Positions 32,301 to 50,727 of a DNA stretch of 64,000 nucleotides are shown piece after piece. Positions within the stretch are counted from its first letter, which is position 1. Every line of letters begins with the position of its first letter. The DNA is taken from positions 15,324,701 through 15,388,700 of the forward strand of contig OY540816.1 in the NCBI GenBank assembly GCA_961205875.1, in the 5' to 3' direction. The translations under genes were made by a program, and so were the position numbers. The notes under the pieces are model-generated. The model made no database searches, was not told the origin of the DNA, and saw nothing but the letters and a program-made list of their open reading frames with translations. This DNA is from Sialis fuliginosa. Lineage: Eukaryota; Arthropoda; Insecta; Megaloptera; Sialidae.

Positions 32301-35300
32301 AGAAATCCATTGGGATCGACGAAGGACAAGCCGTATTACCAACACGCAAGGGCCCGGTGCGCAGAATCCTATAATTACAGTTACTGAACATACTCCAACA
32401 CCTTCGCCAGATTATTTAAAGAGACAAGTAAGTAAACATAAATATTTTGAAATTATTATTAATGAAATTTTAATTTTTATATTACTAAAATAATTTAATT
32501 GTTGCTTAAATTTTTTTTTTACAATTCATTTTTACAGAGTTCTTTTGATAGTCAGCTGGATGCAATAAGCCTATACGGAAGTAAAAATAAAATTGTGCTA
32601 GAAAGAAAACCAAGTTTGACACGATCTCAAACGGATTCAAACATAACGTACCTCGGAGAAGAAATACAAGAAGCTCCTGGGTCCACCTGTTATATTACTA
32701 AAGATGGTGATCTAGATTATCAAGTTATATTAAAAGTAATTTAAAACAGTATCTATTATTTAACTTGCAACATATTTCAAAATAAAATAAAAATTTAATT
32801 TATTATAAATTTCAGGCTGTACATTCAGCTTCTTTACATGACAACGTATGCTGCAGCTTACGTGTAATTGAAGTGATTTTAAACCTTATCAATATCCTCA
32901 TGGATATGGGGGTGTTAAAACAATGTTTAAGAGAAGAAGCGATAAGTTCTGGAAAAGGTAAATCAGCTCAAACCAAAGAAGATCCATTGATTCCAGGATT
33001 ACCTACAGAAAAACCACCAGAACCAGCATCAACTAATACTGGTAAAGCAAATTTGTCATCCGATAGTGATTCGAAGAAAGATGAACAAATTTCACCTCAT
33101 AGTTTGATTATGAATATTATTACAAGGTTTGTAGATTTTATACCAATAAACTTATTATTAAACGTTAAAATCTGAGTATAAAAAATACAAGTTTAACATC
33201 ATATTACTATCAATTTCACAAATATACATTTTTTATAAATATTTTAGGGTACTGAAATATCTAGGATGTCCGCATGGCTGTGCTGATGCTCAAAGAGGAC
33301 CGACAGCTGAATGTTTAAGAACACAGTGTCAAAATATACTGACAAAGTTACATCGAGCAAGCCAGAAACAGTTCTCAAAATTTTTAAAAGATATGGTGAA
33401 ATATCAATCTATATCAGACACTTTAGATTTCTTTCATGCTTATGTTGGATTTTGCGTGGATCCAAGTTCTTTATTATCACCTTTAAGTAAGTAAGAAACA
33501 TCATTAAATTTAATTATTTATCATTATTGGATATTAATGAATATTCTTTTATTTAGCTGACCAAAAACGGACTTCCAGTAAATCTCCAGATATCGGTTCT
33601 CAGAGTGGATATGCTACAAACTTTGGTGCTGGAATAAGTGGAGGTGGTGTCAAAGGAATAGAAGGACAAGTAATTTCATACGTTTTCAAAATGTTGGTGT
33701 CACGTTTTGTAAAATCAAGTAAAGAACTTAAAACACAAGATAACATTGTGAGTTTAATATATTCATATTCAAGTATATTTGTTATATATTTTTCTATTTT
33801 AGTCTTTATACTGTGATGTACGACAATTGGTTACATATATAAAAGAAGCCCACGGAGGTATATTCAGAAGAATAGCATTGAGTGCGTTGCTCGATACAGC
33901 AAATAAACCAAATTTAAAAACTGATGTGCAAACTACAAGAGTAATACGGTACGAAATTTAATGAATTTATGAAAAATATTCCTGTTATAATTATTAATTT
34001 TATCATCCAGCCACATGCATCAAAACGAGACAGAAGAATCTCGTGAATCAACAATAGGTGAAACAGGTTCTACTGATGAAAAAGGAGCCAGAAAACAATT
34101 ATTCAAGAAACGAAGCACTTCTTCCAATTGTGCAGTATGTTTGATTGATCTTATAGTTATTTTTGATTGTTTTTAAACATAAATATTTACACATTTTACA
34201 GAGTTTATTAGAAACAGAAAATGAAGATCTGACTAAAAGTAGTCAAAGTCCAATAGGAAATATTAGAAAAAAGCATATTTTAACTCCACGTCACAGTGAA
34301 AGAACGCTAGGAATTATGGATCCAATTCCAAATAAAAAAGTTCCTCAAAATAAAGCAAAATTTGGAAGTTTAGGTAATGCAAAAAAAAAAATTAATGAAA
34401 AGTTAAATTCAAAAATAATCACAAGTCAAACATTTTCAGTAAATTGGTTCAAAAAGGACACGACCACATCAGCATCCACTGAAAGTGCTGATAACGGTGA
34501 CTCTCCAACTGAAAGTACAGGGTTTATACGACAGCCTTCAATGTACCCTGGAAAAACATATCAAAAAGGCAGTTCCAGGTATTAATTAAATATCTCAAAT
34601 AATATTTTATAAATCTTTTTTGCTTTGGTGGTTATTTTGCCCAACGTTTCATCACATATTGCAAAATTCTTCAAAGCTTTGAAAATCTATAAAGTCTTAA
34701 ATGTGAAGAAACGTTTGTTGAAATATCAATAATTGAAAAAATTACATCTTAACCGTTTTTAGTAACGTTGGACAAACCTTACAAAAAGCAAAACGAAGAA
34801 TGGGCGATAAACTAAACAAAATGGGATTAAAAAAAGGAAAAAAGAAAGACGGAAGCTTAGAAGAAATGCCAGGAGGATGTAAGTGTTATTTTTAATTAAT
34901 GATTTAATTAATAACTATTGATTAAATTATGTATTAATTAAAAAAAACTTCTTACAGATTTCAGTAGACGAAATTCTCTTGAAATGGGTGATACCTCCAG
35001 AGAATCTGAATTTGTAATACTGAAAGAACGTCGACTAGTATCTACTGAACCGGTTTGTGATGGAATGCAACGGTTATCGTTTTTATTAGAGACTTGTTCA
35101 CCAGGCACTGTGCCCGATCCACATTTGTTAGCTGCTATACTTGATTTGGTAAACATTAAATTGCAATATTTATTATTTATTGATTGAACTAAAATTATAA
35201 CTTATATTTCAGCCACACTCAGCAGTAGTTGCAAGAGCTGCATTCCTCTTAGAGTGTGCACATTTTGTACACAACTGCAACCGCAATCAATGGCCTAATT

Positions 35301-48387: not shown

Positions 48388-49469
48388 ATTTAATCTCTTA
48401 TACAGTCAGTGTAAATTGGATTGGATTTTATTTATATTTACAGTAATAAATTTGTTATTTTCGTACAATCGAAAAAAAAAAATACCAAACACTGAAGATT
48501 TAATAAAAAGAATTGAAAACATTCTTCAGTTTAAGACTAAATTTATTCACTCTGCTTAAGAAGTTAATAAATTCATTAATGAATCTTATGAAATTTTAAC
48601 ATCCATTTTGATGACAAAATATCAATATATATATAGCATACAATTTTATATGCATTTTACTTTCTCGTCTATAAAGATAATTAATCGGGAAAGCGATAAA
48701 TATTTTAATAATTGCAACAATCAAAACATTTTTCTCGTTTTCAACATTGTTATTTTTTAAATGAATAATTTAAAAGTATGAATTTTTAAATTGAAAAGAG
48801 AGATTAATATATAATACAAAAAAATACGTTAAAAATATTTCCATCCTAATATAAGAAAATAACGCCAATATAAAAAAAAATTATCAATGAAAAAATCACT
48901 AATAATAGTTTTTGAGGTAGTTAATTGTACTGAATACACTCGTCGTTAAGAAAAGTTCAAATTATGTACACATAATAACTGTATTAGTAAAATAATGTGT
49001 TAAACATATGTGTATTACTAGATAATATAATAATGATTATGGGATTGTATTAGGTTGATTTGAAATAATATTACTGGTTTAAAGTTTAATATTCAGAGAT
49101 GTTTTTGGAAAATGTAAAAAAAAACGTGAACATTTTCTCAAAAACTTGTATTGTCTCTGTTAGGAGAAGATTAATAAATTCTATGAAATGACTGTTTATT
49201 TCAAATCAACTTAATATTGTTTTATACGTGCCTGAATATATTATGTCTTCTTGCATAAAATGCACAAAACATACATTAAATCTCTTATTTGGCTGTTATT
49301 AAAATTGTATATTGAAATAATATATAAATAGGTAGAATGTAAGGAGGCTAAATATAAATAATTATGTTTGTTATTTTGTATACTAGAAGGGAGGAATGAG
49401 AATTAAAATAAAATATATACGTATACATTACAACTAAATATGTACACCGTAATCACAATTAACAATGTC

Positions 49470-49513
49470 ACTCAACATGTGTTTCAACTTTACAAAAAGT
49501 CCTCATCAGGAGT
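49470..49513 (-). ncRNA. Candidate minimal hammerhead ribozyme motif, left copy
   Basis: On the minus strand: ACUC (stem I), CUGAUGA core, stem II ACUUU-UUGU-AAAGU with an extra G·U pair, GAAA core, then C-ACAU-G as a one-pair stem III, UU at the cleavage position, and GAGU closing stem I with four pairs. Minimal type-I hammerheads with very short stem III are known from Penelope-like elements and retrozymes. The fit is by eye. One G after CUGAUGA is unpaired. Confidence 0.45.
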
Positions 49514-49917
49514 CTATACTAATACCAGAACTTTTGAGTAACCTTAAGCACCTTCTGCACTGTAATTTTTTTTACTATAGAACCAAGTGCATATTGTTTT
49601 TATGATGTTAAAGTATTGTTTGGTTTTTTTCAAAATCCTAGAGAGGTGTTAACCCTTAAATATGACCGGGTTGATAAATCTAGCATTGCTCATCGTATGA
49701 TTACATTAAATCACATATGGGACATAAATAATTTAAAATTAATTGCTATAATAACCAATTGTAGCAGATAGCTTAAAAATGATAAAAGTAGGATTTCTAA
49801 TAATGGTATAGGACCTATTCCAGCTTCTTTTGTCCTATTACCTTGCAGTTGATTGGTCTAAATCATAAAGCGAGATAAGCTCTTTTAGTATTTATTTATG
49901 CATGTCTGGTATTATAG

Positions 49918-49961
49918 GTTCCTGATGAGAACTTCTTGTGAAGCTGAAACACATGTTGAGT
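49918..49961 (+). ncRNA. Candidate minimal hammerhead ribozyme motif, right copy
   Basis: Same order on the plus strand: GUUC (stem I), CUGAUGA at 49922-49928, stem II CUUC-UUGU-GAAG, GAAA at 49946-49949, C-ACAU-G, UU, GAGU. The loop-closing pair of stem II is C-G here and U-A in the left copy, a compensatory change. One outer stem II pair is A·C, and stem I uses two G·U wobbles, so this copy looks weaker. Confidence 0.42.
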
Positions 49962-50727
49962 GCACATTTATTTTAAGTGACTAGAGTAGAAACCACAGTT
50001 TCTCCATTTTCCAGTAATATATATGATAGTGTTCACAATGATCGAAATATAAAAATATGTGTTACGTTTCTAAATTTGTACATTCTCATCAGTCCTTGTC
50101 AAGTATACAATGGTCATATTTATTATTCATTAAGATTAATAACGTAATACTGTTCATATTATTTTTAACAGGGTAGTATTATGTGTTTCATAATTACTGT
50201 TAATGTTGTTGTTATAATTGTTGTATTAAATGTCGTGTGCCAAAAAAAATATTTAGCATTTTTCATCTGTCTATAATAACTAGCGATGCAGTTCCTTTTT
50301 ATATTACATTTATTCAAAATGTTATGAAACACGTTCATTGAGAATTTTTATAGATTTAATTAGATGAAAAATGTTAATATATTTATTGATGTTATTTGCA
50401 ATATGACTTGCACTAAATGTTGCCAAAAAATGTGTAGACTGAATGTTAGAATAGTTGATGTTATTATATATTTACAAAATGTTGATTTATTTAATGTTGT
50501 CTGTTTATAGTTGTTTTTATTTACTGTGATAACGGATCACATTTATTGTTACGGAGTGGAATTTATGGAAAATAAGGATAGACTGATGAAATATTTTTAT
50601 TAACATGTATTAATAAATATACAATAAAATATTATGAATTACTATGTTTTAAATTTATTTCATATATCATTATAGTTATCACTCTCGTTCACAGGTTAAT
50701 TACACCTGTTTTATAAAGAATAAATAT

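What the first reader, a model, noticed from the sequence alone, without database searches (positions are those of the whole stretch)
49461..49970. Inverted pair of minimal hammerhead-ribozyme-like motifs 3' of unc80
Two about 60-bp segments in opposite orientation, roughly 440 bp apart, share CUGAUGA - 17 nt - GAAAC - ACAUGUU - GAGU. Each can fold as a type-I hammerhead: 4-bp stem I (ACUC or GUUC with GAGU), a stem II hairpin with UUGU loop, a one-pair stem III, and UU before the cleavage site. The stem II loop-closing pair changes U-A to C-G between the copies, and stem I keeps pairing through wobbles. Minimal type-I hammerheads with tiny stem III are established in Penelope-like retroelements and retrozymes, where the ACAUGU-like palindrome can let two molecules form a dimeric ribozyme. 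Here no reverse transcriptase frame is nearby, so this may be a small non-autonomous family or a remnant.
Basis: partly seen in the sequence, partly recalled or inferred. Interest (0 to 1): 0.72.

Follow-up and report, generated by a model that had tools for sequence, protein, structure and literature searches.

The report
Ribozyme-bearing ends of dead Penelope element
The two mirror-image hammerhead-ribozyme motifs are the worn-out ends of an old Penelope-type jumping gene, one of very many copies in this genome, and both the element and the ribozyme are of a kind already known.

Summary
The inverted pair is real: 53-nt arms, 87% complementary, and the only two hits of a simple hammerhead descriptor in the window. 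[quoted passage not shown] Between the arms lies a broken endonuclease remnant (49655-49885, tblastn E 2e-16). Relatives carry a reverse transcriptase and a GIY-YIG-like end domain, one in an 854-aa open frame. The 35-nt ribozyme core has 1,969 places genome-wide at up to 3 mismatches. Of 26 two-armed copies checked, 15 have 8-14-bp target-site duplications and 21 have a PLE "tail" at one end, none at both. Rfam gives no hammerhead hit at gathering score, here or in relatives. Yet seven sister PLE lineages in this genome carry the same core with rewritten but pairing stems, one extra base after A9 and a self-complementary stem III. This supports a dimer-type PLE hammerhead in the living relatives; both window copies are decayed. 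The mirror arrangement is best explained by reverse transcription primed on both cut target strands, with the two cDNAs joined head to head (inferred). Known kind, new host lineages, modest interest.

The parts
49430..49528 (-). left arm: inverted 3'-terminal segment (pseudo-LTR part) of the PLE, without tail, containing ribozyme copy 1; outer end placed by eye at about 49428-49433, inner end by eye at about 49528
   Evidence: BLAST to relatives, coordinates and absence of tail
49469..49514 (-). hammerhead-like motif 1: stem I ACTC/GAGT, CTGATGA, extra G, stem II GACTTT-TTGT-AAAGTT, GAA, ACACATGT, T17, stem I
   Evidence: descriptor; inverted repeat; loose pattern
49529..49654 (.). piece of an unrelated dispersed repeat lying between the arms (captured, template-switched or later inserted)
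   Evidence: genomic copies 80-96% identical to query 89-220 or parts of it; matches in L079 and L080
49655..49885 (+). broken remnant of the C-terminal endonuclease region of the PLE frame (stops and gaps)
   Evidence: tblastn with the end of the L064 frame, 52% identity, E 1.8e-16
49917..49962 (+). hammerhead-like motif 2: stem I GTTC/GAGT, CTGATGA, extra G, imperfect stem II, GAA, ACACATGT, T17, stem I
   Evidence: descriptor; inverted repeat
49963..49976 (+). 3'-terminal segment after the ribozyme, partly eroded
   Evidence: sequence; BLAST to relatives
49977..50016 (+). optional PLE 'tail' ending CCAGTA; right end of the insertion
   Evidence: tail match with two edits on the right and none on the left

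Best explanation
An old, broken insertion of an endonuclease-bearing Penelope-like retroelement. Each copy of this family keeps the last 100-130 nt of the element, which hold a minimal type-I hammerhead ribozyme of the dimer-forming PLE kind. Many copies hold two 5'-truncated pieces of the element head to head, so the ribozyme appears once on each strand. Shown: the family, the endonuclease and reverse-transcriptase frames, the two kinds of outer end, target-site duplications, the one-tail rule, and stem covariation across sister lineages. Inferred: the element protein cuts both target strands and primes a cDNA on each from the same 3' region of the RNA; the two cDNAs stop early and are joined by end joining, which makes the mirror pair. 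The ribozyme works, when intact, as a dimer through its self-complementary stem III. In this window both copies are decayed and probably inactive.
For: Inverted pair. Family size: 973 + 996 places at up to 3 mismatches, reversed control 0. Endonuclease remnant between the arms. L064 854-aa frame with RVT_1 E 6e-15; its end piece matches GIY-YIG PF01541 at E 0.0011, 19.7 bits, below the 22.6-bit cut-off. The ribozyme lies just 3' of that frame. Target-site duplications of 8 bp or more in 15 of 26 two-armed copies against 30 of 650 swapped flanks; of 10 bp or more, 13 of 26 against 2 of 650. Tail at one end in 21 of 26, at both in 0, at neither in 5; among the 15 with duplications 14 have one tail. 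The window itself: tail right, none left. Stem II outer pairs 30 of 32 in eight lineages with one extra base, 14 of 32 without; stem III self-complementary in 8 of 8. 8 of 11 pairs with changes on both sides in four lineages, 0 of 500 shuffles. Junctions of 46 mini-copies: 32 different, 18 with 1-4 nt overlap, 5 blunt, 23 with extra bases. PMC11167929 (main text read): a PLE protein cleaves and extends both strands, and its tail matches two internal start sites.
Against: No Rfam hammerhead hit at gathering score in the window. Best sub-threshold RF00163 scores in relatives are 21.0 and 17.7 bits against 34. The plus copy gives only a 10.7-bit type III match, E 8.7. A covariance model built from four sister lineages does not find the window motifs convincingly: 49469-49514 ranks sixth at E 4.5, the other is absent, and it finds nothing at E up to 1 in 13 relatives including F1, F5 and F6. 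No clear target-site duplication was established for the window insertion. Pfam's GIY-YIG match is below its cut-off and absent from the scan of the whole frame at E up to 1. In 11 of 26 two-armed copies no duplication of 8 bp was found. Variable junctions do not exclude self-priming in some copies.
Confidence: 0.88

Rival explanations
1. Self-priming: one cDNA (or an antisense template) folds back at the hairpin AGACTGTATCAGTCT beside the ribozyme and copies itself, giving a palindrome; no second target strand is primed.
For: PMC3846280 (passages seen) proposes self-priming for palindromic Penelope copies in Adineta vaga. In 37 of 46 mini-copies the longer arm ends 8-11 nt past CTAACAG, i.e. 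in that hairpin.
Against: The arms differ in length and the junctions vary: 32 different among 46, 23 of them with added bases, although point mutations also count there. The tail is on one arm only in 21 of 26 and on both in none, whereas a self-copied arm should repeat it. L076 has two long arms that end at different depths.
Confidence: 0.25
2. A palindromic DNA transposon (MITE) whose terminal inverted repeats happen to resemble a hammerhead.
For: Short palindromic copies with inverted ends are common, and many ends lie near TTAA.
Against: Duplications vary from 8 to 14 bp. Ends are asymmetric, with a tail on one side only. Longer copies hold a reverse transcriptase and endonuclease and are truncated at the inner, 5' side.
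Confidence: 0.02
3. A retrozyme: a small tandem non-coding element that spreads as a ribozyme-processed RNA circle.
For: L020 holds a 176-bp ribozyme unit four times in tandem between the element's ends, with a 10-bp duplication.
Against: It is the only such cluster among the 100 listed of 488 matches to the non-ribozyme part of that unit, which is a separate dispersed repeat. Other copies are single or inverted, with PLE coding remnants.
Confidence: 0.04
4. The hammerhead resemblance is an inherited but inert sequence; what is kept is only a start-codon region or a protein-binding stem.
For: Neither Rfam nor my own four-lineage model finds the motif well. The published PLE inserts RNA equally well with a dead ribozyme (PMC11167929). 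No two-armed copy with both arms cut exactly at the predicted cleavage site and a six-base spacer was found.
Against: Core and both stems are held together across eight lineages with compensating changes.
Confidence: 0.12

Closest known systems
Minimal hammerhead ribozymes of Penelope-like elements (Cervera and de la Pena 2014; Lunse, Weinberg and Breaker 2017; neither was held, known here from citing passages in PMC7761336 and PMC6155905)
   Same: Type-I layout, minimal stem III, position in PLE terminal repeats; the title of the 2017 paper says such variants cleave as dimers.
   Different: Here one extra base after A9 in all eight lineages and a self-complementary stem III of 4 or 8 nt; I could not check whether those papers describe the extra base.
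Poseidon/PAc element of Anolis carolinensis (PMC11167929)
   Same: Reverse transcriptase with C-terminal GIY-YIG endonuclease, hammerhead in the pseudo-LTR, tail explained by two start sites of reverse transcription, both target strands cut and extended; the ribozyme overlaps the start codon, as in lineage F3 here.
   Different: In the window's own family the first ATG in the ribozyme is followed by a stop after 12 codons, and the ribozyme lies 3' of the frame.
Penelope families of Adineta vaga (PMC3846280)
   Same: Inverted pseudo-LTRs, 8-10-bp duplications, tail optionally at one of the inverted repeats, palindromic junctions, captured foreign DNA.
   Different: Here hundreds of very short two-armed copies; that paper's main text does not use the word hammerhead (term search).
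Animal retrozymes (PMC7229834)
   Same: Type-I hammerhead in small repeats, PLEs suspected as helpers.
   Different: The window element is a coding PLE remnant; only one tandem array was seen (L020).

Membership tests
Endonuclease-bearing Penelope-like element | Reverse transcriptase in one frame with a C-terminal GIY-YIG endonuclease | tested here: met
   L064 854-aa frame: RVT_1 E 6e-15; GIY-YIG E 0.0011 but under Pfam's cut-off. In the window only an endonuclease remnant. That the reverse transcriptase is of the Penelope clade was not tested by a tree; it rests on domain order and recalled motifs.
Endonuclease-bearing Penelope-like element | Inverted or direct terminal repeats with an optional 30-40-bp tail at one of them | tested here: met
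   21 of 26 two-armed copies with one tail, 0 with two; window: right end only
Endonuclease-bearing Penelope-like element | Short target-site duplications of variable length | tested here: met
   15 of 26 at 8 bp or more, swapped control 30 of 650; not established for the window copy itself
PLE-type minimal hammerhead ribozyme | Core CUGANGA ... GAAA with stems I and II | tested here: met
   Descriptor and cross-lineage pairing; in the window plus copy three of four outer stem-II pairs form
PLE-type minimal hammerhead ribozyme | Very short or self-complementary stem III suited to dimers | tested here: met
   Self-complementary in 8 of 8 lineages (the length of the segment was chosen by me). 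The window copies have the decayed ACACATGT
PLE-type minimal hammerhead ribozyme | Self-cleavage | not testable with these tools
   needs a transcript assay
Rfam RF00163 Hammerhead type I | Score at or above the gathering cut-off | tested here: not met
   0 matches in the window; relatives at most 21.0 bits against 34
Animal retrozyme | Tandem non-coding units of about 170-400 bp carrying the ribozyme | tested here: not met
   Window copy is a single two-armed insertion with coding remnant; only L020 is tandem among the 100 listed of 488 places
MITE / DNA transposon | Symmetric inverted ends and fixed-length duplications | tested here: not met

The most novel reading that the evidence does not exclude
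The hammerhead in these elements is kept mainly as an RNA-pairing device. Its self-complementary stem III joins two element RNAs, the dimeric protein carries both, and each cut target strand primes on its own RNA. The mirror-image insertions would then be the genomic trace of two RNAs being used at once, and self-cleavage would be a by-product or a late step.
Probability: 0.15. Interest if true: 0.75.

Novelty: new member of a known kind. Interest (0 to 1): 0.33.

Why it matters
By itself it adds a host to a known association between Penelope elements and hammerhead ribozymes. The genome has two uses beyond that. It holds eight PLE lineages whose ribozymes can be compared side by side, and well over a thousand copies of one lineage whose ends and junctions record how the element integrates. 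That makes the open questions testable: what the ribozyme does for a Penelope element, and whether both target strands are primed. It also shows that the Rfam models tried here are a poor filter for this ribozyme type.

Tried and rejected
Two RNAs per insertion: I asked whether the arms of one copy carry different versions of a C/T marker. Exact counts of mini-copies were 46 C/C, 1 T/T and 6 mixed, which is what chance pairing gives. Mutation after insertion would give the same, so it decides nothing. Marker discordance in 83 fetched arms is biased because loci were picked by likeness to the window.

Core conservation: 8 of 730 core positions differ against 247 of 5,911 other non-CpG positions and 41 of 455 CpG positions. 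The same picking bias applies, so I do not count it as proof of selection.

Cleavage trace: among arms that I list as ending inside the ribozyme or beyond it (13), none has its inner end within 3 nt of the predicted cleavage point (read off by hand). One arm, in L015, has its outer end near there. One search (both arms cut at the site, spacer exactly six) found 0. These are weak tests.

A covariance model from four sister lineages did not find the window copies. MAFFT misplaced GAAA when all seven sister motifs were aligned, so I compared stems by script. Sister pieces: the motif was found in 9 of 15 fetched pieces (L086-L100); L088, L089, L091, L093, L094 and L098 had none. L095 and L100 adjoin or continue L088 and L093; L098 is a real miss. 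Fold energies gave support only for L099 (z -3.1) and the predicted shape for L092. PDB search of the L064 frame gave only weak matches, best E 0.16.

Papers: PMC11167929, abstract and main text section 3 read in full. PMC3846280, PMC7229834, PMC6155905 and PMC7761336, passages only. Others in listings only. PMC4209133, PMC5785218 and PMC5850863 are not held.

Full report
What is there. The window holds an inverted repeat at 49469-49521 / 49910-49962, 87% complementary with 388 nt between. Each arm carries CTGATGA, a 17-nt hairpin segment, GAAAC, ACATGTT and GAGT on opposite strands. Rfam reports nothing for the window at gathering score and no hammerhead at E up to 10 for 49000-50500. For an 81-base piece there is only a 10.7-bit type III match at E 8.7.

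Family. The window is part of contig C8 of a 392-Mb, 20-contig genome. A 551-base query finds 59 matches with 40 of 627 candidates scored. A 75-base ribozyme query finds 45 matches with 40 of 134 candidates scored. The 35-nt core at up to 3 mismatches has 973 + 996 places and none for the reversed control. The usual form is CTGATGA-G-GACTTC-TTGT-GAAGTC-GAA-ACACGTGT-C|GAGTG. The window's ACACATGT-T differs from it at CpG sites.

Element. tblastn of the end of a related frame finds a remnant with stops at 49655-49885, E 1.8e-16, 52% identity. That frame, L064 307-2871 minus, is 854 aa. It matches RVT_1 at E 6e-15, and its last 137 aa match GIY-YIG at E 0.0011, just under Pfam's cut-off. A reverse-transcriptase fragment from L076 finds 150 scored matches in the genome at 30-100% identity, so several PLE-like lineages live here. 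Calling them Penelope-like rests on domain order, the motifs GIYK..SYIGQT and YVDD (recalled), the tail and the inverted ends; no tree was made.

Ends. Outer ends come in two kinds, about +96 to +104 and about +133 from the start of the ribozyme probe. Among 26 two-armed insertions from the fetched loci, 21 have the tail at one end, 5 at neither and none at both. Fifteen have a duplication of 8 bp or more, against 30 of 650 swapped flanks; 13 have 10 bp or more, against 2 of 650. Of the 15, 14 have one tail; in L065 the tail is shortened and missed by the script. In the window the tail is on the right (49977-50016) and missing on the left. A duplication could not be made out with confidence there. 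Loci were picked by likeness to the window, so these are not random samples.

Inner ends. Arms are cut at the 5' side. In 46 exact palindromic mini-copies there are 32 different junctions: 18 overlap by 1-4 nt, 5 are blunt and 23 contain extra bases, some of which may be point mutations. In 37 of 46 the longer arm ends 8-11 nt past CTAACAG. In the window the left arm also ends near there, after CCAGA at 49525-49529. It is followed by a piece of an unrelated repeat, which fits capture or template switching, and then by the endonuclease remnant. In L076 both arms are long and carry endonuclease sequence in opposite directions.

Ribozyme test across lineages. I fetched 15 pieces near the expected 3' ends or starts of sister lineages; 9 hold the motif. 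Counting one copy each, the window's family plus seven sister lineages (F1 at 54% reverse-transcriptase identity, F2 40%, F3 37%, F3b 36%, F4 34%, F5 and F6 30%) give 30 of 32 outer stem-II pairs if one base is left after A9. Without that base there are 14 of 32; halves swapped between lineages average 2.4 of 4. Stem I has 25 of 32 against a swapped mean of 1.75 of 4. The segment that would be stem III is self-complementary in 8 of 8: ACACGTGT twice, ACGT three times, AGCT once, AATT twice. For F5 and F6 the stem I pairing is poor (2 of 4) and other stem III lengths are possible, so they are the weakest. On a four-lineage alignment 8 of 11 pairs change on both sides, 0 of 500 shuffles reach that, and slid partners fall to 0-2. 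In F1, F3, F3b, F2 and F4 the extra base is U and makes ATG with its neighbours. In F3 an open stretch begins there (MDSEHCPKRRTPAMDK, read by me), as reported for PAc, whose frame starts at stem II (PMC11167929).

Results against. Rfam finds none of the sister motifs at E up to 10 and gives family copies 21.0 and 17.7 bits against 34. My four-lineage model does not find the window copies convincingly (one copy sixth at E 4.5) nor 13 related loci. Minimum-energy folds of the window copies are ordinary. Core conservation in fetched arms (8 of 730 against 247 of 5,911) is biased by selection of loci. So the case for the fold rests on comparison between lineages, and activity is untested.

How it probably works. 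PMC11167929 shows for a lizard PLE that the protein cuts and extends both target strands, that synthesis starts at two internal sites which bound the tail, that the ribozyme needs the protein to cleave, and that a dead ribozyme does not hinder insertion. Copies here look as that predicts: two 5'-truncated cDNAs, 3' ends outward, ends at the two sites, joined with microhomology or filler, flanked by short duplications. Self-priming, proposed for Adineta vaga (PMC3846280), explains one-tail copies and variable junctions less well but is not excluded. The idea that the palindromic stem III pairs two RNAs which then serve the two strands is my inference; marker counts neither support nor exclude it.

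Verdict. Observation right; reading half right. It is a decayed Penelope-like insertion with PLE-type hammerhead motifs, a known kind, in a genome that is unusually good for studying it.

Noticed in passing
L020 1428-2359: A 176-bp unit (ribozyme plus part of another dispersed repeat) stands four times in tandem between the element's ends, with a 10-bp duplication. Only such cluster among the 100 listed of 488 places.
   Followed up: partly
49529-49654: A piece of an unrelated dispersed repeat lies exactly between the two arms, perhaps captured during integration.
   Followed up: partly
G000 contig C10, 2234-40829: Reverse-transcriptase matches of one PLE lineage at about 3.59-kb spacing near the start of the contig, first on the minus strand and then on the plus strand: a large head-to-head tandem array, possibly near a chromosome end.
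   Followed up: no
L092 284-345: In lineage F3 the start codon lies inside the ribozyme core (A9, extra U, G) and an open stretch begins there; seen also in L096.
   Followed up: partly
L085 189-439 and 1843-2042: Two separate two-armed mini-insertions 1.4 kb apart, each with its own duplication of 14 and 12 bp.
   Followed up: yes
34073-34111 (+) and 50066-50092 (-): Two further matches to the loose pattern CTGATGA..GAAAC that fail the fuller descriptor; probably chance.
   Followed up: yes
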